Source: Candidatus Poribacteria bacterium (GTDB lineage Bacteria > Poribacteria > WGA-4E > WGA-3G). From it: a stretch of 36,716 nt of DNA. A program made the translations under genes and the position numbers. The notes under the pieces are model-generated. The model had not been told where the DNA came from, did no database searches, and saw only the letters and a list, made by a program, of their open reading frames with translations. The DNA is taken from contig JAPPBX010000015.1 in assembly GCA_026702755.1 (NCBI GenBank), positions 1 through 36,716 of the forward strand. The letters are read 5' to 3'. This document shows positions 3,684 to 18,705 of this stretch, in pieces (the first letter of the stretch is position 1; each line of letters opens with the position of its first letter).

Positions 3684-4181
3684 ATGCCCATGCCACGAAA
3701 AAACAAGATACTCAACACCGGCGACATCGCACCACTATTCACGCTGCCATCACACCAACGCGAGGAAATATCGCTGGAAACGTACCGCGACGCGCAAAAC
3801 CTTGTCCTAACCTTCTTCCGAGGGACATGGTGACCGAACAGTCGCCGCCAGTTGTCGGCAGTACAAGAAAATGTCGAAGCATACACAGAATACACAGCCA
3901 CGCCGCTCGCCATCGCGGGACAGTGGCCCCGTGAACTCCGAGGCTACGCCGACAAAAACGGCATCACATTCCCGTTATTGGTGGACAAAACCCGAAGCGT
4001 CATCAAAAGTTATGGGGTCTACCACTGGCTGAGTTTAGAAGCTTACAACATCGCGCGTCCCGCAACATTCATCATTGACAAAACTGGGATTATCAGATAT
4101 ATGTATATCGGCACGCATCAATTTGATCTTGTGAAACAGGCGGAAGTCCTCGAATCACTGAAAGAGATTGCAGCACTTTAA
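3684..4181 (+). CDS. peroxiredoxin (AhpC/TSA), probable selenoprotein with in-frame TGA
   Basis: Reading from ATG 3684 gives 165 codons with one internal TGA at 3831-3833 (codon 50). The frame is continuous on both sides. The N-terminal part has the AhpC/TSA pattern (NTGDIAPLFTLPSH, then NLVLTFFRGTW). The TGA follows at the peroxidatic-cysteine position of the usual RGxWCPxC motif, and then comes PNSRRQLSAVQENVEAY. The C-terminal part (ITFPLLVDKTRSVIKSYGVY, ARPATFIIDKTGIIRYMYIG) is typical thioredoxin-fold Prx. The whole protein contains no cysteine, so without selenocysteine it would have no redox residue. Reduction of peroxides through a Sec selenol is inferred. Start 3690 (Sec at codon 48) is an alternative that fits a leaderless transcript. 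Conventional gene calling would report only the fragment 3852-4181. A recent nonsense mutation is the alternative explanation. Confidence 0.8.
3844..3859 (+). promoter_or_regulatory. candidate bacterial SECIS stem-loop
   Basis: A hairpin begins ten bases after the TGA at 3831. The outer stem GCCG (3844-3847) pairs with CGGC (3856-3859). After one C-T mismatch there is an inner C-G closing pair and the loop AGTT (3850-3853). Known bacterial SECIS elements sit just downstream of the UGA and have a small apical loop with a G in its first two positions; this hairpin meets both conditions. It is short, so it supports the selenocysteine reading but does not prove it. Confidence 0.55.
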
Positions 4182-4189
4182 AAATGATT

Positions 4190-4217
4190 TTGATTTCTGA
4201 TTGAAATATGATATAAT
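4190..4217 (+). promoter_or_regulatory. promoter of the riboflavin operon
   Basis: TTGATT (4190-4195) and a perfect TATAAT (4212-4217) are separated by 16 bases. Transcription would start near 4224-4226, leaving a leader of about 80 bases before ribD. That leader is too short for an FMN riboswitch, and none of the conserved RFN blocks is present. Confidence 0.65.
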
Positions 4218-4262
4218 TTAAAAAACTTGGGTGTAGATAACGCATCGCTGTTTTCTTGGAAT

Positions 4263-4292
4263 CGCTGGCGAGGTTTCAAACTTCGCCAGCGA
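4263..4292 (+). repeat. palindromic repeat in the ribD leader
   Basis: TCGCTGGCGA and TCGCCAGCGA form a perfect 10-bp stem around GGTTTCAAACT, whose own GTTT/AAAC could extend the pairing. The 3' arm ends exactly where the ribD Shine-Dalgarno GAGGA begins (4291-4295). Nearly the same palindrome (GCTGGCGAGGTTT...CGCCAGC) occurs at 22524-22551, so it is a dispersed element. Its position next to the ribosome binding site could influence ribD translation. Confidence 0.7.
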
Positions 4293-4305
4293 GGAATTGT
4301 CGCAA

Positions 4306-5409
4306 ATGGACGAAACACATATAGCCTTCATGCAACGCGCGCTGGATTTAGCACGGCAGGCGAAGGGGCGCACGAGTCCCAATCCGCTCGTCGGCGCGGT
4401 CATTGTAAAAGATGGAAAGGTTATCGGTGAAGGGTATCACAAGAAAGCGGGAACCGCACATGCAGAAGTCCATGCGCTGAACGCCGCAGGCGGAAACGCC
4501 AAAGATGCAACGCTTTACACGAACCTTGAGCCGTGTTGTCATTGGGGAAGGACACCACCCTGCACAGAGGCACTGATTCACGCAGGTATTGCTCACGTCT
4601 ACATCGCAGAGGTCGATCTGAATCCGAGTGTCGCAGGCAAAGGCGTTCAACAACTTCAAAATGCGGGTATCAACGTCCATGTAGGTGTATGTGCACAAGA
4701 AGCATCAGACCTGAACGAGGTGCATCGGAAATACATTCAGACAGGCAAGCCGTTTGTTATCCTCAAAACAGCGATGAGCCTCGACGGAAAAATCGCCACT
4801 GCTTCTGGCGAATCGCAATGGATTACATCGGAGGCATCGCGACAGCGCGGACACGAAGTTCGGGACGCGGTGGATGCAATCCTTGTCGGTAGAGGCACAG
4901 TCGAACGTGACAATCCATCGCTAACGACACGACTTCACGATAGAAAAGGACAGGACGCGACCCGGATTGTGTTAGATTCACACGGGAGAATTTGCCCGGA
5001 TGCCCGTATTTTCAATGCCGAAAGTGAGGCAGGCGTTATCATAGCAGCAACGGCAGAGGCACCCCCTGAAAACGTTAACGCTCTCGACAAGGCAGGTGCG
5101 GAAGTCATCACTGTTCCAACATCGCACGGGAACAGGGTCTGTTTTGAAAGTTTGATGAAGATACTGGGCAAACGTGAGATAACAAGTGTCCTGATAGAAG
5201 GCGGTGGTGAAATCAACGCATCGGCGATCGCTGCAGGGGTTGTGGACAAGGTTATGTGCTTCGTTGCCCCCAAACTCATCGGTGGGCAGAATGCGCCTGG
5301 ACCGATCGGTGGTGTAGGCATCCGCAGTTTGGCTGACGCAGTAAACCTACGACGAATTAACGTCACACCGATACCTGAGCACGACCTTTTAATTGAAGGA
5401 TATCTATAA
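4306..5409 (+). CDS. ribD: RibD: riboflavin deaminase/reductase
   Basis: This bifunctional enzyme carries out the second and third steps of riboflavin synthesis: deamination of the pyrimidine ring and NADPH-dependent reduction of the ribosyl side chain. The N-terminal cytidine-deaminase-like domain shows the zinc site: HAEVHAL (His plus catalytic Glu) and PCCHWGRTPPC. The C-terminal reductase domain starts near residue 145 with VILKTAMSLDGKIA, followed by SQWITSEASR, AILVGRGTV..DNPSL and a late VLIEGGGEINAS. ATG 4306 was chosen over TTG 4297 because GAGGA at 4291-4295 is correctly spaced for the ATG and would touch the TTG. At 367 residues the length is normal. It is first in a D-E-BA-H operon, and its stop is one base before the ribE ATG. 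Confidence 0.96.
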   Translation: MDETHIAFMQRALDLARQAKGRTSPNPLVGAVIVKDGKVIGEGYHKKAGTAHAEVHALNAAGGNAKDATLYTNLEPCCHWGRTPPCTEALIHAGIAHVYIAEVDLNPSVAGKGVQQLQNAGINVHVGVCAQEASDLNEVHRKYIQTGKPFVILKTAMSLDGKIATASGESQWITSEASRQRGHEVRDAVDAILVGRGTVERDNPSLTTRLHDRKGQDATRIVLDSHGRICPDARIFNAESEAGVIIAATAEAPPENVNALDKAGAEVITVPTSHGNRVCFESLMKILGKREITSVLIEGGGEINASAIAAGVVDKVMCFVAPKLIGGQNAPGPIGGVGIRSLADAVNLRRINVTPIPEHDLLIEGYL

Positions 5410-5410
5410 C

Positions 5411-6082
5411 ATGTTTACTGGGATCGTTGAGGAGCTCGGAAAGATTCGGAGCATCCAAGTTAAATCTCAAGATGCGACGCTTGAAATTCAGGCGAGCGAT
5501 GTGCTCAACGATGCGAAAGTCGGGGACAGCATTTCTGTTGACGGTGCCTGCCTCACAATCCGTTTTCTCACATCGGAAGCATTCATTGTCGATGCTTCCG
5601 CTGAGACCTTGCGCAGGACAACATTGGGAGAGCGGAAGGTCGGAGACCCCGTTAATTTAGAACGTTCACTCCGACTCAGCGATAGATTAGGTGGACATCT
5701 CGTACTGGGACACGTCGATGAGGTAGCAACAATCTGTGGGTGGAAAGACGAAGGCGACGCTTCTTTGATGCAGGTAACGATAAGCAGTGCCACCAAACCT
5801 TACATCGCATATAAAGGATCAGTTACCGTCGACGGGGTCAGTTTAACTGTATCAAACCTACACGCAGGTGCCTTTGAAGTTGCATTGATTCCACATACAA
5901 AGGACGTGACAACCCTCGGAACGAAACGCACCGGGGCAAAGGTTAACCTTGAGGTTGATATCGTTGCGCGTTATCTTGAAACGCTTCTCAGAAATACCGA
6001 GGAAAAGAGGGATTGGACTGACCAACCCTCTACCGAGACTCTTAATTTAAACTTTTTATCGAAACACGGCTATATTAGTTAA
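5411..6082 (+). CDS. ribE: RibE: riboflavin synthase alpha chain
   Basis: This 223-residue enzyme dismutates two 6,7-dimethyl-8-ribityllumazine molecules to riboflavin plus the diaminouracil precursor. The two homologous lumazine-binding barrels are clear. The first begins MFTGIVEELGK with SISVDGACLT; the second has HLVLGHVDEVA, YKGSVTVDGVSLTVS and the closing VNLEVDIVARYLETLL. The MFTGIVE start is the family standard; a start 18 bases earlier would overlap ribD and add nonstandard residues. GAAGGA, within the end of ribD, gives a binding site about ten bases upstream. The alternative symbol ribC is used in some species. The last ~20 residues after the helix are a short unconserved tail. Confidence 0.96.
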   Translation: MFTGIVEELGKIRSIQVKSQDATLEIQASDVLNDAKVGDSISVDGACLTIRFLTSEAFIVDASAETLRRTTLGERKVGDPVNLERSLRLSDRLGGHLVLGHVDEVATICGWKDEGDASLMQVTISSATKPYIAYKGSVTVDGVSLTVSNLHAGAFEVALIPHTKDVTTLGTKRTGAKVNLEVDIVARYLETLLRNTEEKRDWTDQPSTETLNLNFLSKHGYIS

Positions 6083-6237
6083 TGGTTATCAGTTTTCAGT
6101 ACGGTTTTTCTGCGAAAAAACCTTTCAGTTATCAGTTAAAGAGGTCTGCTGTGGCAGTAACAACATATTTACCTGCCACAAGAGAGTAACTGACGACTGA
6201 CAACTGATAACTGACGACTCTAAAATGGTAGGCAAGA
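6083..6237. repeat. modular palindromic spacer between ribE and ribBA
   Basis: This spacer consists of GTTATCAGTTTTCAGT, the ACGGTTTTTC/GAAAAAACC hairpin (6101-6123), CAGTTATCAGTTAAAGAGG, an inner CTGTGGCAG...CTGCCACAAG stem, and then the inverted return arm of TAACTGACGACTGACAACTG units. The outer arms can pair to form one long branched hairpin inside the operon mRNA. No Shine-Dalgarno of note follows before ribBA. Confidence 0.8.
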
Positions 6238-7470
6238 ATGCCAAATAATTTTAACACCATTCCTGAAGCACTCTCTGCAATCCAAAACGGGGAAATGATC
6301 ATCGTCGTTGATGAACCCGATCGCGAGAACGAAGGCGATCTCATCATGGCGGCTCAAAAGGTAACGGCAGAGACTATCAATTTCATGGCGAGATACGGTA
6401 GGGGTTTGATATGCCTACCGACCTGTTCAGAACGCCTTACCGAACTCGAACTCTACCCCATGGTCACGTCGAACACGGCGCAAATGCAGACTGCTTTCAC
6501 GGTCACCATTGATGCCAAAGAGGTGACGACCGGTATTTCGGCACAGGAACGCGCCTACACGATCCAGAAATTCGTTGACCCTGAAGCCATCCCGTCAGAC
6601 TTCGTCCGCCCCGGACATATTTTTCCCTTAGAAGCGAAACCGGGCGGTGTACTCCGGCGCGCCGGGCATACCGAAGCCACTGTTGATTTAGCACAGATGG
6701 CGGGACTCTATCCCGCGGGTGTCCTCTGTGAGATACTCAATGAAGATGGAAGCATGGCACGCGTCCCTGAGTTAATGGAGTTCGCCGCGCAACATCAACT
6801 CAAGATTATCACCATTGCCGACCTCATCGCATACCGCCGTGAGACAGAGACTTTGATTAAACGTGTCGCCACTGCCGACATTCCGACCGCGCACGGTGAG
6901 TTCAAACTTTACGCTTACGAAAGCACCGACACAGGTGGTGAAAGCGTTGAAGACGATAGAACACACATCGCACTCACAAAAGGCGACCTTACCGATGCAG
7001 CCCCTGTCTTAGTCCGTGTGCACTCGCAATGTCTCACCGGTGATGTTTTCGGCTCTCTCAGATGCGATTGCGGTGAACAACTCGAAATCGCCTTGCAAAC
7101 CATTGAGAAGGAGGGTAGAGGCGTACTCGTCTATATGCGACAGGAAGGGAGAGGGATGGGACTCAAGGGGAAACTGCGGGCATATCAATTACAAGATAGC
7201 GATGGGTTGGACACCGTTGAGGCGAATGAACACCTCGGATTTCCTGCAGATTTGCGAGATTACGGGATCGGCGCGCAGATATTAGCCGACTTAGGTGTCC
7301 GAAAGATGCGATTGATGACGAACAATCCACAAAAGGTCACAGGACTGTCTGGACATGGACTTGAAATCGTCGAGCGCGTCCCTTTGCAAACCGAACCGAA
7401 CGCCTTTAACCGCCGATATTTAGAAACAAAACGTTCTAAACTCGGTCATCTCCTCCTACATGAGGAATAA
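6238..7470 (+). CDS. ribBA: RibBA: DHBP synthase / GTP cyclohydrolase II
   Basis: This 410-residue fusion provides both entry substrates of riboflavin synthesis. Residues 1-205 are 3,4-dihydroxy-2-butanone-4-phosphate synthase, with the acidic metal-binding motif [23 protein letters not shown] and [12 protein letters not shown]. Residues from about 210 onward are GTP cyclohydrolase II, with [20 protein letters not shown] (three zinc-binding Cys), [16 protein letters not shown] and [14 protein letters not shown], ending in the usual [20 protein letters not shown]. All key residues are present and the length is typical. The ATG follows a repeat island with only a weak AGGCAAG upstream, so translation may depend on coupling or on an unstructured A-rich start region. 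Confidence 0.96.
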
Positions 7471-7581
7471 AGAATGGAGAGTTGACGGTTAACAGTTAAC
7501 AGTTAAAAAAGGCATTCGGTTCATCAAAATCTCTCTTTAACCGACAACTGACAACTGACAACCGATAACTAATAAAAAACT
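7471..7581. repeat. palindromic spacer between ribBA and ribH
   Basis: This is a run of GTTAACAGTTAACAGTTAAAAA, a unique middle segment, and then an inverted run of TTTAACCGACAACTGACAACTGACAA ending ATAAAAAACT directly before the ribH ATG. The two runs are mutually complementary. No ribosome binding site is visible before ribH. Confidence 0.75.
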
Positions 7582-8061
7582 ATGCCAAACGTCTACGAAG
7601 GACATCTTCTCGGTGAAGGTCTCAGCTTCGGTATTGTTGTCAGTCGATTCAATAGTTTCGTTACCGAAAAACTCCTCGCTGGCGCGCAAGATGCCCTCAA
7701 ACGGCACGGTGTCGATCTGGACGAGGTCGATATTTTTTGGACACCTGGTGCTTTTGAGATACCGGGAATCGCTAAACGCCTCGCAGAAAGCGGACGCTAC
7801 GATGCTGTCATCTGCCTCGGCGCAGTGATCCGAGGTGCGACACCACATTTCGATTACGTCGCAGCCGAGAGTGCGAAGGGAATCGCCAACATATCATCAA
7901 GCACCAACATCCCCGTCATTTACGGCGTTATCACCACAGACACAATAGAACAAGCACTCGAACGCGCCGGTATAAAAGCCGGAAACAAAGGGGCTGAAGC
8001 TGCCGTTGCTGGCATTGAAACAGTCAACCTTTATAAAGCCGTCGAAAAAGTCATTACATGA
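7582..8061 (+). CDS. ribH: RibH: lumazine synthase
   Basis: This 159-residue enzyme condenses the diaminouracil intermediate with 3,4-dihydroxy-2-butanone-4-phosphate to form 6,7-dimethyl-8-ribityllumazine. Family motifs are in order: FGIVVSRFN at the N-terminus, [25 protein letters not shown] with the catalytic His, and [16 protein letters not shown] followed by [10 protein letters not shown]. The length fits the icosahedral or pentameric subunit. It closes the rib operon. The stop is TGA, which shows that TGA is a normal stop in this genome. Confidence 0.96.
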
Positions 8062-13575: not shown

Positions 13576-16500
13576 ATGCAAACCCGCCTCACGAAGACAT
13601 GCACACGGTTACTCATCATAACACTTTTCCTTTATGCGGGAATAGGCAACCTGCCTATTATGCCCCCAATTGACTCGAAGAACGTCGCCGTAGCGGCACC
13701 GATCTCATCAAAGCAACGTCCCCGCGCTGCCGCAAGAAATAGGGCGAAAACCCAAAGAGAGATCGAATTAGTGAATAGCACCTCGCAGGGTGTAACAATT
13801 CAGCTCGTCATCCCGAAATCGGATTTTTCGTTTGATAATAAACCTGAACTTTTCAGCAGTACCGAAACAGGAACGGACGCACGGATCCCCGATTTTGAAA
13901 GTCCAACCGTCTCTTTCCCCGGGTGCCGCTTCACGACTGAATTAGGGGTGCTGCGTCTTCCCATCCAATCCACGCTCATCGGTGTTCCCGCCGATGTCCA
14001 TTTTCAACTACGAATTGTTGAAAAGGATTTCAGCACACATAAGGTGGAAGACCTTATGTCTACCTCAAATTTTTCGGTGCAGTCGGACACCACGCGGAAA
14101 AAAGATAGTTTCTTACCAGAAAATCTTGTAAAAATCGGAGAAGCAAGTCAGATTCGAGAGAACCACGTCCTACCCGTTCAGCTCAACCCAGTCCAGTACA
14201 ACCCTATTCGCCGTGAAATAAGGCTTCACCACCGACTTGTGGTAGAAATTCGCTTCAGCAGTACCGGCACACGTGAGCAATCTACCATCCTATCTACAAT
14301 ACCACGCGGTTTACATACCGAATCCACTGTGTACGACGCAATCTTCGATGATATGCTCATTAACCCACAGAGTGCCAATCGGTGGCGTTCTCCTATCCAA
14401 CGAGCACCCGCCGCCCCGAGTATTTCTCCCACAGGACCGCGTTATAGAATCAGTGTAACCGAATCCGCAATGTACAGCATCACAGCACAGGATCTCGCCG
14501 CTGTTGGTGCCAACTTAGAGACTATTACCCCGGCGACGCTGACGTTGACAAACAAAGGAAAACAGATACCGATCTTTGTCCGTGGCGAAGACGACCAAAG
14601 TTTCGATCCAACGGATGAAATTATTTTTTACGGTGAACGCCAACACGGGGAAACCAGTTATATTGATCCCTATTCCAATGAGAATATCTACTGGCTCTCT
14701 TGGAATACCGGACGAGGGATCCGAATGGTAACGAAAACCCCTCTCGCAAATGCAAACAACGCGCAAACTTACACACACTTCCTCACACGCGCACATTTCG
14801 AGAAAGACCAAGAGTTCAGACGCTTCCGTAATGCAAGTCTCACCGAAAACCAAATTTATACAGAATTCAGCCAAGGACTCCAAGAGCGTTTTTTCACGCT
14901 GACAGAACTACCACCGCTCCCAAACGACAGTTGGTTCTGGGCACAACTGACCGCGCCAGCGTCAAAACCATTTTCCTTCATGCTGCCCGGTGTCGAAGCA
15001 ACCGCTCGACCCGCCACAGTCCGTGTCGCTCTTCACGGTAGATCCAATACGGAACATGATTGCAATGTCTGGCTCAACGACAAAATCGAACTCGGAGAAG
15101 CACGCTGGAACGGCGAAACCGAATATCAACTTCAGAATCAGGAAATTTTCCAATCCTTTCTCAACAACGGAAAGAACACTATTCGGATTACAAATCCCAC
15201 AAGCGCAGGAGCACTTATAGACATCCTCATGCTCAATTGGATTCAGATTGATTATTGGCGAAATTTCAACGCAGAAAAAAATGTGCTTCCCTTTGCAATC
15301 ACCCCGCTTCTGGATGAAATTGGGGCTGTGAATCCAAACTTTGAAGTCCAATTAAAGAACTTCTCTACACCCGACATCGAAATTTACGGTATTGACGGCA
15401 CCCGTTACGTCGGTTTATCCCCGCTTGTTGACGAGGAGATTCCTGGAACTTATAGAGTCCTGTTTCAATCGAGTCAAATTCGCCCTAAGGCTGTGAACGA
15501 CCCCACCATCCAATACATCGCACTGACCGGTAACCAATTCCGAAAACCGAAAATCTCAGTAGACGCACCATCTGATTTGCGTAGCATTCAGAACGGGGCA
15601 GACTACATCATTATCACACATCATCACTTCCTTCAGGATGTTCAGCCCCTTGCTGACTTCCGCCGTCAACAAGGGATGCGTACCAAAATCGTTGACGTTC
15701 AAAACATCTATGACGAATTTAACCACGGTATCCTCAATCCTAAGGCTATCCGTGAATTCCTTAGTTACGCCTACCACAATTGGCAACCACCCGCCCCAAC
15801 TTACGTCCTTCTCGTCGGCGATACCGACATCAAAAACAAAATCGATTTTGTCCCAACGATGCAGGTGCAAATCCCGGGCTACGGATCCAGCGCGAGTGAT
15901 CATCAGTTCGTCACATTCCGAGGCACAGACAGTTTTCCAGACATGCTGATCGGAAGAATGCCCGCCAATAACCGCGTTGATGCCCGTATATTCGTTGAGC
16001 GCGCTATCAACTATGAAACCGCTCCCAAAGTCGGTCCATGGCACAAACGATTCCTCATGCTCGCAGGTTCGGATATTAGATTCCATTGGCAAACCAATGG
16101 ACTTATTTCCAATAATCAACTGAGTGGCAGATACGAGATCCAACGTATTTATGCGCCCCATACAGATGACGAACTGACTTTAACAACCGACGATGCCCTC
16201 ACGCCTATCGGGAGACGCGTCATTGACGGCTTTAACGATGGTGCCAGTATCGTCAACTATATTGGGCACGGCGGCGGTGGTAGATGGGCTTCCAGTCGGA
16301 TGCTCGACTTTAAAGATCCGGAACAGAACTTAACCAACATCTCGCAACTCCCATTCGTTATCAGTATGACCTGTTACACCGGCTCGTTTGACGGCATCAA
16401 AAATAGTCTCGCTGAAGAACTCCTCCGCTCCGAAAACGGCGGTGCCATCGCAGTTTTCGGGGCAACCAGTATTGGACTCTTAGATGGCGACTTCCTACTC

Positions 16501-18705
16501 AACCTCGAAATTTTTGATGTTATCTTCAACGATCAAACACACAATATCGGTGCTATTGTTGCACAAGCCAAAACCCAATTTCTTATTAACGCCTCCAAAT
16601 TTCTTGATCTCGCTGAAGTCTTTACCCTTTTCGGTGACCCAGCGACAAATTTAAGAATACCACGCGACGAGATACAGGTCACAGCGGAGATGAGTCCCTT
16701 CCAAGGACGAAACGCGTCTCAAGGAGATACACGCCTCTCCGTTTCTGCAACGCTGCCTGAACGTCTCTCCGATGCAGATGTCGAAATTACCCTTGTCCCC
16801 ATAACTGAAACCGCGGTCGCCAACAATATCGTCCTTGAACAGGAACCTGTTGCCATCGTTAACGGGCAGGTCAACACACAAATACGGGTTCCATCTGATC
16901 CCGAATTTGATGTTGGTGCTGTACAAATCTACGCATGGGATGCGGGTGAAGAAGCCATCGGACATGCAACCTACGATATCTTATCCCGATACGTTAAGAA
17001 CGTCCGCCTTGTTCCCTTTCCCGTTGCATCAAATCAACCGACGCATCTTTACGTAGAAGTAGTCGACAAAAATGCGATTGATGAAATAACTCTGTTTTGG
17101 TACGATTGGATCAAGGGAGACAACAAATTTTTCTCTATTCCGGTAGTGCCACATACTGGCACGACCTATAGGAGTGAACGCCCCATCCCCGGGTATCCAG
17201 ATGCGCAACCGATCGATTATTACTTAGAAGTTAAAGTCAAAACTGGGCGAACGTTCCAAACAGAGACGGTCGCTTACGATGTGGGAGATGTTGAAATTGA
17301 AATTGATCTCGCGCTTCTGGCACAAACCTTTACATGGGACACCACACCGCCCTTTACGCTCTCAGCACAAATCCGAAACATAGAAGAACAAACGGTACGA
17401 AATATCCCTGTTCAGTTCTTCGTAAAAGCGTTGAAAGGCGAGACAAATACCGCCAGTATAAACACCGCGACGACATCTATACTCGAACAACTGAAGGATG
17501 CGACACCAATCGGAAACCTGCAAATAATTCCCGAAATTCTCCCCGGTAACCAAGTTGCCGTGAGCGTCCCGTGGCAACCGCCACCGGGAGACTATCTGGT
17601 CACAATCTACGTGGACCCACCATCCGCCGAACTACCGAAGGGGAGTATCATCGAAAAACGTGAAGGGAATAACTGGACATCGAAGCGATTTTCGGGCAAC
17701 CGTATCATCCTGACACCTGAAACACGCAACCAACCCATTCAGAGTCCAGACGGCATCTTCCAGGTCACGATTCCACCCGATAGTATTCAAACCAGCACCG
17801 TTCTGACTTACACCGAAGAAGCCCTTACTATCACAAATCAGCCCGACATTGCGGTGGCAATCCCCGCATCGGCTATCGCGTATCAACTCGGGTTCACCGA
17901 ACAAACCGAATTAACAGCAAACGCGACCTTCCAAAAAGAGGGAAGCAACGGTGTCTACATCTATCGGCGTGACGAGGATAACGGAAATTGGATTCGGGTC
18001 GGTGGGGAAACCGTGGATGAAAAAACTGTCGCTGCAGAGGTTAAATTGCCTGGAACCTTCGCGTTGCTTTCGCATAGCGATACAAGCCCACCTGCTGTTG
18101 AATTGACATTCGAGCATCAAGGCTTCGTTGACGGCGATTATGTCTCTGATACACCGACTATCTCAGCACGGATTGAGGATGCAAACGGCATCGACTCGCG
18201 CATAGAAAACATAGTACTCACCAAAAACGGCGAAAGTGTGCCGCAAGATGAATATGTGATTGCCGCATCGCCGACCAACAACAATCTGCTTTTAATAACT
18301 TATACGCCTGTCTTGGACCCCGGCGAGTACCGCATCCGGTTGCAGGCACAAGACGCAAACGGGAATATATCAGATGCGGAGCGCAATGCGACCGTCGCCG
18401 GTGAATTTGAAATTACGAACATCGCCAACTTCCCGAATCCATTTGTGCCGGGAAGCGGCACCCATTTCGCCTATTACCTCACAGAAAGTGCCGATGAGGT
18501 CAGCCTAAAAATCTATACCATAACGGGTCGTCGCATCATCGCCATTGACACGCTTGATGCCTCTGTCTCCTACAACGAATTCCACTACGACGGTCGCGAT
18601 GCAGACGGTGAACCGCTGGCAAACGGGGTCTATCTCTACAAGTTCACTGCCCGCAAAGGGGATAGCCGCAAGCAAAAATTCGGGAAAATCGCCGTGCGAA
18701 AATAG
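13576..18705 (+). CDS. secreted gingipain-like C25 peptidase with FlgD-type C-terminus
   Basis: This is a 1709-residue exported protein. Residues 1-42 form a signal peptide (LLIITLFLYAGIGNLP...VAVAAP). A long N-terminal region (about 45-660) includes a propeptide-like part. The peptidase domain (about 670-1030) starts DYIIITHHHFLQDVQPLADF, has YVLLVGDTD and DMLIGRMPANN, and carries the C25 catalytic dyad His898 (YIGHGGGG) and Cys933 (SMTCYTGSF). Ig-like repeats follow. The last ~100 residues (NIANFPNPFVPGSGTHF..., LKIYTITGRRI, GVYLYKF) form an FlgD/type IX-secretion sorting-like domain. PorU, the type IX sortase, is a C25 enzyme, so this could be PorU-like or a secreted gingipain relative. 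No other type IX gene is in the window, and the substrate is unknown. The likely location is the cell surface. Confidence 0.88.
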   Translation: MQTRLTKTCTRLLIITLFLYAGIGNLPIMPPIDSKNVAVAAPISSKQRPRAAARNRAKTQREIELVNSTSQGVTIQLVIPKSDFSFDNKPELFSSTETGTDARIPDFESPTVSFPGCRFTTELGVLRLPIQSTLIGVPADVHFQLRIVEKDFSTHKVEDLMSTSNFSVQSDTTRKKDSFLPENLVKIGEASQIRENHVLPVQLNPVQYNPIRREIRLHHRLVVEIRFSSTGTREQSTILSTIPRGLHTESTVYDAIFDDMLINPQSANRWRSPIQRAPAAPSISPTGPRYRISVTESAMYSITAQDLAAVGANLETITPATLTLTNKGKQIPIFVRGEDDQSFDPTDEIIFYGERQHGETSYIDPYSNENIYWLSWNTGRGIRMVTKTPLANANNAQTYTHFLTRAHFEKDQEFRRFRNASLTENQIYTEFSQGLQERFFTLTELPPLPNDSWFWAQLTAPASKPFSFMLPGVEATARPATVRVALHGRSNTEHDCNVWLNDKIELGEARWNGETEYQLQNQEIFQSFLNNGKNTIRITNPTSAGALIDILMLNWIQIDYWRNFNAEKNVLPFAITPLLDEIGAVNPNFEVQLKNFSTPDIEIYGIDGTRYVGLSPLVDEEIPGTYRVLFQSSQIRPKAVNDPTIQYIALTGNQFRKPKISVDAPSDLRSIQNGADYIIITHHHFLQDVQPLADFRRQQGMRTKIVDVQNIYDEFNHGILNPKAIREFLSYAYHNWQPPAPTYVLLVGDTDIKNKIDFVPTMQVQIPGYGSSASDHQFVTFRGTDSFPDMLIGRMPANNRVDARIFVERAINYETAPKVGPWHKRFLMLAGSDIRFHWQTNGLISNNQLSGRYEIQRIYAPHTDDELTLTTDDALTPIGRRVIDGFNDGASIVNYIGHGGGGRWASSRMLDFKDPEQNLTNISQLPFVISMTCYTGSFDGIKNSLAEELLRSENGGAIAVFGATSIGLLDGDFLLNLEIFDVIFNDQTHNIGAIVAQAKTQFLINASKFLDLAEVFTLFGDPATNLRIPRDEIQVTAEMSPFQGRNASQGDTRLSVSATLPERLSDADVEITLVPITETAVANNIVLEQEPVAIVNGQVNTQIRVPSDPEFDVGAVQIYAWDAGEEAIGHATYDILSRYVKNVRLVPFPVASNQPTHLYVEVVDKNAIDEITLFWYDWIKGDNKFFSIPVVPHTGTTYRSERPIPGYPDAQPIDYYLEVKVKTGRTFQTETVAYDVGDVEIEIDLALLAQTFTWDTTPPFTLSAQIRNIEEQTVRNIPVQFFVKALKGETNTASINTATTSILEQLKDATPIGNLQIIPEILPGNQVAVSVPWQPPPGDYLVTIYVDPPSAELPKGSIIEKREGNNWTSKRFSGNRIILTPETRNQPIQSPDGIFQVTIPPDSIQTSTVLTYTEEALTITNQPDIAVAIPASAIAYQLGFTEQTELTANATFQKEGSNGVYIYRRDEDNGNWIRVGGETVDEKTVAAEVKLPGTFALLSHSDTSPPAVELTFEHQGFVDGDYVSDTPTISARIEDANGIDSRIENIVLTKNGESVPQDEYVIAASPTNNNLLLITYTPVLDPGEYRIRLQAQDANGNISDAERNATVAGEFEITNIANFPNPFVPGSGTHFAYYLTESADEVSLKIYTITGRRIIAIDTLDASVSYNEFHYDGRDADGEPLANGVYLYKFTARKGDSRKQKFGKIAVRK

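What the first reader, a model, noticed from the sequence alone, without database searches (positions are those of the whole stretch)
3684..4181. Peroxiredoxin with in-frame TGA at the peroxidatic position: an overlooked selenoprotein
One frame runs from ATG 3684 to TAA 4181 with a single TGA at 3831. The residues around it read FFRGTW-TGA-PNSRRQL, so the TGA replaces exactly the catalytic Cys of AhpC/TSA peroxiredoxins. The protein has no cysteine anywhere. TGA acts as a normal stop in neighbours (ribH, hisH, both EutN-type genes), so a genome-wide code change is unlikely. Peroxiredoxin-like proteins are a known class of bacterial selenoproteins. A standard gene caller would annotate only a truncated C-terminal piece.
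Basis: partly seen in the sequence, partly recalled or inferred. Interest (0 to 1): 0.88.

Follow-up and report, generated by a model that had tools for sequence, protein, structure and literature searches.

The report
Selenium-using Prx-fold protein in Poribacteria
A Poribacteria-type bacterium reads a UGA "stop" inside a small antioxidant-type gene as the selenium amino acid selenocysteine; the gene is real and strongly conserved, but its selenium sits at a thioredoxin-like position rather than the usual peroxiredoxin catalytic position, which makes it a new variant of a known class of selenoprotein.

Summary
Confirmed, with one correction. Window 3684-4181 is an AhpC/TSA-family gene with one in-frame TGA (3831), and it is a selenoprotein gene. 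The genome holds SelA, SelB, tRNA-Sec and a Sec-containing SelD. 66 of 67 orthologues in Poribacteria-lineage genomes carry exactly one TGA; the other has Cys (TGT) at the same codon. Selection is equally strict before and after the TGA (pN/pS 0.20 and 0.19). The lowest synonymous variation falls at codons 54-59, where a bacterial SECIS would lie, although a stable hairpin is weak in the window's own copy.

Correction: the TGA is not at the peroxidatic Cys. It is three residues upstream, at the Thr of PxxxTxxC; the peroxidatic position is an invariant Ser and the Prx catalytic Arg position is Pro. The motif is UxxS in a Prx fold (AlphaFold pLDDT 93; nearest Bcp4 and 1-Cys AhpE). Reviews list PF00578 selenoproteins as TxxU, UxxC, UxxU or UGC, and UxxS only for PF13911; no NCBIfam model covers this protein. 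In genus and family it usually lies just upstream of ribD-ribE-ribBA. Most likely a one-selenol redox enzyme re-reduced by an external thiol; substrate unknown. New variant of a known kind.

The parts
3690..4181 (+).
   Evidence: start codon by orthologues
3831..3833 (+). In-frame TGA read as Sec (U50 counted from 3684)
   Evidence: TGA in 47 of 48 aligned orthologues, TGT (Cys) in one; 66 of 67 in whole-genome search
3840..3842 (+). Ser53 codon, at the place of the peroxidatic Cys of canonical peroxiredoxins
   Evidence: invariant in 48 orthologues
3843..3860 (+). Probable SECIS zone (codons 54-59) with the lowest synonymous variation in the gene; weak hairpin GCCG/CGGC at 3844-3847 with 3856-3859
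   Evidence: p 0.0004 at this place, 0.07 over the gene; hairpin weak in the window copy, no covariation support
4297..8061 (+). Downstream riboflavin genes ribD, ribE, ribBA, ribH; neighbours, co-oriented; the link to the first three is conserved in most genus and family members
   Evidence: ribH not tested in relatives

Best explanation
The gene encodes a genuine selenoprotein. UGA 3831 is decoded as Sec by SelB and tRNA-Sec, and the Sec sits at the N-terminal position of a UxxS active site (U50-P-N-S53) in a peroxiredoxin fold. Shown by sequence: conservation, machinery, predicted fold, Sec position, absence of any Cys in the window protein. Inferred: it works as a one-selenol redox enzyme. 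The selenolate at the start of the first active-site helix attacks a hydroperoxide (or another oxidised substrate), and since the protein has no resolving Cys, the oxidised selenium is reduced by an external thiol or thioredoxin-type partner, as in 1-Cys peroxidases. Residues invariant in this clade but not in its UxxC relatives (Q80-W81) probably tune the site or bind substrate. My separate estimates: selenoprotein 0.97; one-selenol mechanism 0.6; peroxide as main substrate 0.5.
For: Sec machinery: SelA, tRNA-Sec beside selB, SelD with its own Sec. TGA conserved in 66 of 67 orthologues, Cys in the other. pN/pS 0.198 before and 0.190 after the TGA. No Cys in the window protein. Prx fold with high confidence, nearest Bcp4 and 1-Cys AhpE. 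Local synonymous constraint at codons 54-59. Ser53 invariant in the clade.
Against: No protein or RNA data. The SECIS hairpin is weak in the window copy (z 0.26), fails the published bSECIS rules there and shows no covariation. About half of the orthologues have one Cys near the C-terminus, which could act as a resolving residue in those. Loss of the Prx catalytic Arg and motif Pro argues against ordinary peroxidase chemistry.
Confidence: 0.85

Rival explanations
1. It is a selenoprotein, but a thiol-disulfide or mixed-disulfide reductase (monothiol, thioredoxin-like) and not a peroxidase.
For: Thioredoxin-like site: Sec at the CxxC nucleophile position and Pro126 at the place of the Prx Arg. 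ResA is among the best NCBIfam hits, though below cut-off. Relatives carry UxxC or CxxC.
Against: The overall fold is nearest to AhpE and Bcp. The second Cys needed for dithiol exchange is absent.
Confidence: 0.35
2. A pseudogene, or a sequencing error that put a TGA into a Cys gene.
For: An in-frame stop in a single assembly would look like this; one relative has Cys.
Against: The same TGA in 66 of 67 independent assemblies, no other stop in 48 sequences, pN/pS 0.19 downstream of it.
Confidence: 0.01
3. TGA is a sense codon (for example Trp or Cys) throughout this genome.
For: Several other AhpC-TSA genes of the genome also hold an in-frame TGA.
Against: ribH, hisH and both EutN-type genes end in TGA; the in-frame TGAs lie at redox motifs; SelA, SelB, tRNA-Sec and SelD are all present; the replacing residue in G038 is Cys.
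Confidence: 0.01
4. Translation stops at the UGA and restarts at TTG 3852, giving a 109-aa C-terminal protein, with the UGA as a selenium-dependent switch.
For: The tail is an ORF under table 11.
Against: The tail lacks the active site; selection upstream of the TGA is as strict as downstream, which fits one continuous protein.
Confidence: 0.02

Closest known systems
Prx-like thiol:disulfide oxidoreductase selenoproteins, PF00578, UxxC/UxxU (PMC13188914, PMC9312934; Prx-like 1 in PMC2398784)
   Same: Same Pfam domain, Sec at the same (thioredoxin N-terminal Cys) position; the genome itself has such a paralogue, FYRGGWUPFC (L004)
   Different: The second redox residue is Ser instead of Cys; own invariant residues GQWPRE, YHW, HQFD; no Cys in the window protein
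AhpC/TSA family UxxS selenoprotein of the Olavius algarvensis symbiont, PF13911 / cd02970 (listed in PMC9312934 and PMC13188914)
   Same: UxxS motif in an AhpC/TSA-type protein
   Different: Different Pfam family: the window protein has no PF13911 hit even at E 1. Sequences could not be compared directly because the original paper is not held
Canonical Sec peroxiredoxins, TxxU (PrxU type)
   Same: Prx fold, Sec in the active-site loop and helix
   Different: There the Sec is at the peroxidatic position; here it is three residues earlier and that position is Ser. PrxU model NF040737 scores 24 bits with a cut-off of 270
M. tuberculosis AhpE, a 1-Cys peroxiredoxin
   Same: Among the closest solved folds (TM 0.83-0.85) and the best sequence match in the PDB; one catalytic residue and an external reductant (the latter from my own knowledge)
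   Different: Catalytic Cys45 aligns with Ser53 and Arg116 with Pro126
Glutathione peroxidases, UxxT
   Same: Sec at the thioredoxin N-terminal Cys position with no second Cys; a conserved Gln after a central strand (loose resemblance, recalled from memory)
   Different: No glutathione peroxidase family among the Pfam hits at E 1; the geometry of the GPx catalytic residues could not be measured without coordinates

Membership tests
Bacterial selenoprotein | In-frame UGA at a redox-active position, conserved across relatives, with Cys in homologues | tested here: met
   66 of 67 orthologues with TGA, one with Cys at that codon
Bacterial selenoprotein | SelA, SelB, tRNA-Sec and SelD in the genome | tested here: met
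Bacterial selenoprotein | bSECIS hairpin just downstream of the UGA | tested here: inconclusive
   Synonymous dip at codons 54-59; 24 of 48 orthologues meet the rules against 17% background, but the window copy does not; no covariation
Bacterial selenoprotein | Selenium shown in the protein | not testable with these tools
   Needs 75Se labelling or mass spectrometry
AhpC/TSA (PF00578) family | Domain match above the gathering score | tested here: met
   97 bits with a cut-off of 26
Canonical peroxiredoxin | PxxxTxxC (or TxxU) active-site motif | tested here: not met
   R-G-T-W-U-P-N-S: Arg at Pro, Sec at Thr, Ser at the peroxidatic Cys
Canonical peroxiredoxin | Conserved catalytic Arg | tested here: not met
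   Pro126 aligns with Arg116 of AhpE; canonical rows L126 and L127 have Arg in that column
Prx-like selenoprotein, PF00578 UxxC | Sec followed by a Cys three residues later | tested here: not met
   Ser in 48 of 48 orthologues
PF13911 UxxS selenoprotein (Olavius symbiont) | PF13911 domain | tested here: not met
   No PF13911 hit for P0001 at E 1; the Cys orthologue L061 gives only 12.7 bits with a cut-off of 27
Any curated NCBIfam family | Score above the curated cut-off | tested here: not met
   Best 52 bits against a cut-off of 170

The most novel reading that the evidence does not exclude
A distinct, previously unnamed selenoenzyme subfamily of Poribacteria. It keeps the peroxiredoxin fold but has abandoned the peroxidatic Cys, its motif Pro and the catalytic Arg, and works as a one-selenol catalyst at the thioredoxin position with its own set of invariant residues (GQWPRE, YHW, HQFD), perhaps tied to flavin metabolism through its place in front of the riboflavin genes.
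Probability: 0.4. Interest if true: 0.62.

Novelty: new variant of a known kind. Interest (0 to 1): 0.52.

Why it matters
Reading by the standard code truncates this gene throughout the Poribacteria lineages that have it. It adds a lineage-wide selenoprotein with a motif (PF00578, UxxS) that the reviews read here do not list; by the rule stated in PMC9312934 (same domain but different Sec motif means a different subfamily) it would count as a new subfamily. It also offers a natural experiment: one lineage (G038) swapped Sec for Cys while keeping SelB and other selenoprotein genes. In the held literature the only relevant mention of Sec together with Poribacteria that I read is that SelA and SelB are frequent in sponge symbiont genomes (PMC5649159), so a concrete Sec user is useful.

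Tried and rejected
Pseudogene, sequencing error and code change were rejected by conservation, selection and stop usage. A single shared SECIS helix was tested and not supported by covariation. Rfam found nothing in the window and no tRNA is there. Placing the Sec at the peroxidatic Cys was rejected. A translation of the C61 locus in the wrong frame was discarded; the ORF is. The Olavius symbiont paper (PMC1976440) is not held. The tree does not firmly settle whether UxxS arose once: 66% of bootstrap trees, with long branches.

Full report
Observation. The frame 3684-4181 reads MPMPRKNK...FFRGTWUPNSRRQL...EIAAL* with one TGA at 3831 and no Cys. Pfam AhpC-TSA covers residues 13-140 at E 9.9e-28, across the TGA. 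With table 11 only the 109-aa tail is an ORF. TGA is the ordinary stop of ribH, hisH and both EutN-type ORFs. The true start is probably ATG 3690.

Is it a selenoprotein? Machinery in the same genome: SelA, full-length at E 7.5e-157; SelB at 351 bits with a cut-off of 242; tRNA-Sec at 78 bits directly after selB on the same contig; and SelD, itself with an in-frame TGA in CAGUASKL. Orthologues: 47 loci, all titled Poribacteria, and a search of 146 related genomes. Of 67 orthologues at 53% identity or more (the window gene and one partial copy included), 66 have exactly one TGA. The other (G038, seen as L061) has TGT, Cys, at the same codon. In 48 aligned sequences there is no other stop, 60 of 158 positions are invariant, and pN/pS is 0.198 before and 0.190 after the TGA. 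G038 keeps SelB and four other TGA-bearing AhpC-TSA domains, so its Cys is a local replacement and not loss of the trait. Among the genomes tested, those without a SelB above cut-off (G065, G074, G078) have no such orthologue; the numbers are small, and several genomes with SelB also lack it.

SECIS. Within the gene, the lowest synonymous variation over six codons lies at codons 54-59, which begins 9 nt after the UGA (observed/expected 0.41, gene mean 0.78). This is p 0.0004 for that place and 0.07 if any place is allowed. Codon 56 is CAG in all 48 sequences and codon 57 is TTG in 44. The rules for bacterial SECIS given in PMC13188914 are met, in my own implementation, by 24 of 48 orthologues against 17% of control positions, but not by the window copy. 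The 43-nt fold of the window copy is -6.0 kcal/mol with z 0.26, while two relatives give z about -2.4. Covariation gives no support. I take the SECIS as probable in place and undefined in structure. Other Sec genes of this genome (L004, L005, C61) do show hairpins that fit the rules, or nearly so.

Where the Sec sits. AhpE aligns without gaps as FFPLAFTGIC against FFRGTWUPNS, and the canonical homologue L127 as FYPKDKTPGC. The Sec therefore occupies the Thr position, Ser53 the peroxidatic Cys position, Arg46 the motif Pro, and Pro126 the catalytic Arg. The model (pLDDT 92.8, pTM 0.90) is nearest to Bcp4 and AhpE, with TM-scores normalised by the query of 0.83-0.89. The active site is therefore of thioredoxin type (UxxS plus a Pro) in a Prx fold.

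Relatives. Outside the clade the closest homologues are UxxC or CxxC, many with FYRG.WUP.C, including one in this genome (L004). A tree puts the UxxS rows on one side of a branch, with modest support (68/84) and long branches. Q80-W81 of GQWPRE, invariant in the UxxS clade, is absent from all UxxC and CxxC rows of that alignment.

Neighbourhood. In most genus and family members the gene lies tens to a few hundred bases upstream of ribD, ribE and ribBA on the same strand. In some family members the gap is larger (L061, L068, L077, L083), and in the more distant L078-L082 no rib gene was found in the roughly 3 kb held on that side. A link with flavin metabolism is only a suggestion.

Mechanism. 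Shown by sequence: conservation, machinery, predicted fold, Sec position, absence of Cys in the window protein. Inferred: one-selenol catalysis with an external reductant. A Cys near the C-terminus occurs in about half of the orthologues; the window protein and others lack it, so it cannot be essential. Peroxidase and mixed-disulfide reductase remain open.

Known or new. Reviews list PF00578 selenoproteins with TxxU, UxxC, UxxU and UGC, and UxxS only for PF13911. The window protein does not match PF13911, and no NCBIfam model reaches its cut-off. No held paper names both Poribacteria and selenoprotein; one reports that SelA and SelB are frequent in sponge symbiont bins. The verdict is a new variant of a known kind. 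That nobody noticed it earlier rests on the held library only.

Noticed in passing
L002/L003 (own genome C61:49345-50163): One reading frame with two peroxiredoxin domains and two in-frame TGAs (DFTGGUTAELC and DFGRGUTAQVC): a tandem protein with two Sec, both at the peroxidatic position. A similar pair of TGA-bearing domains lies at G038:C2:3603220-3604041.
   Followed up: partly
L024 (own genome C61:81600-81938, - strand): Thioredoxin-fold domain with WUGCR, an in-frame TGA at a UGC-type motif.
   Followed up: no
L004 and L005 (own genome C52:1112, C38:44205): Two further AhpC-TSA proteins with UxxC motifs (GGWUPFC, TGTUGTC), each followed by a hairpin that fits the bacterial SECIS rules.
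   Followed up: partly
L134 (own genome C96): SelD is itself a selenoprotein (VKCAGUASKL).
   Followed up: yes
window 3684-7470: The selenoprotein gene lies upstream of ribD-ribE-ribBA in most genus and family relatives; the reason is unknown.
   Followed up: partly
window 13576-18705: 1709-aa protein with a C25 (gingipain-type) peptidase domain, a C25 propeptide and a FlgD Ig-like domain.
   Followed up: no
window 1114, 3369, 3419: Three copies of a short palindromic repeat, GCCCCGCTGGGGC, in stretches without an obvious gene, two of them just upstream of the selenoprotein gene.
   Followed up: no
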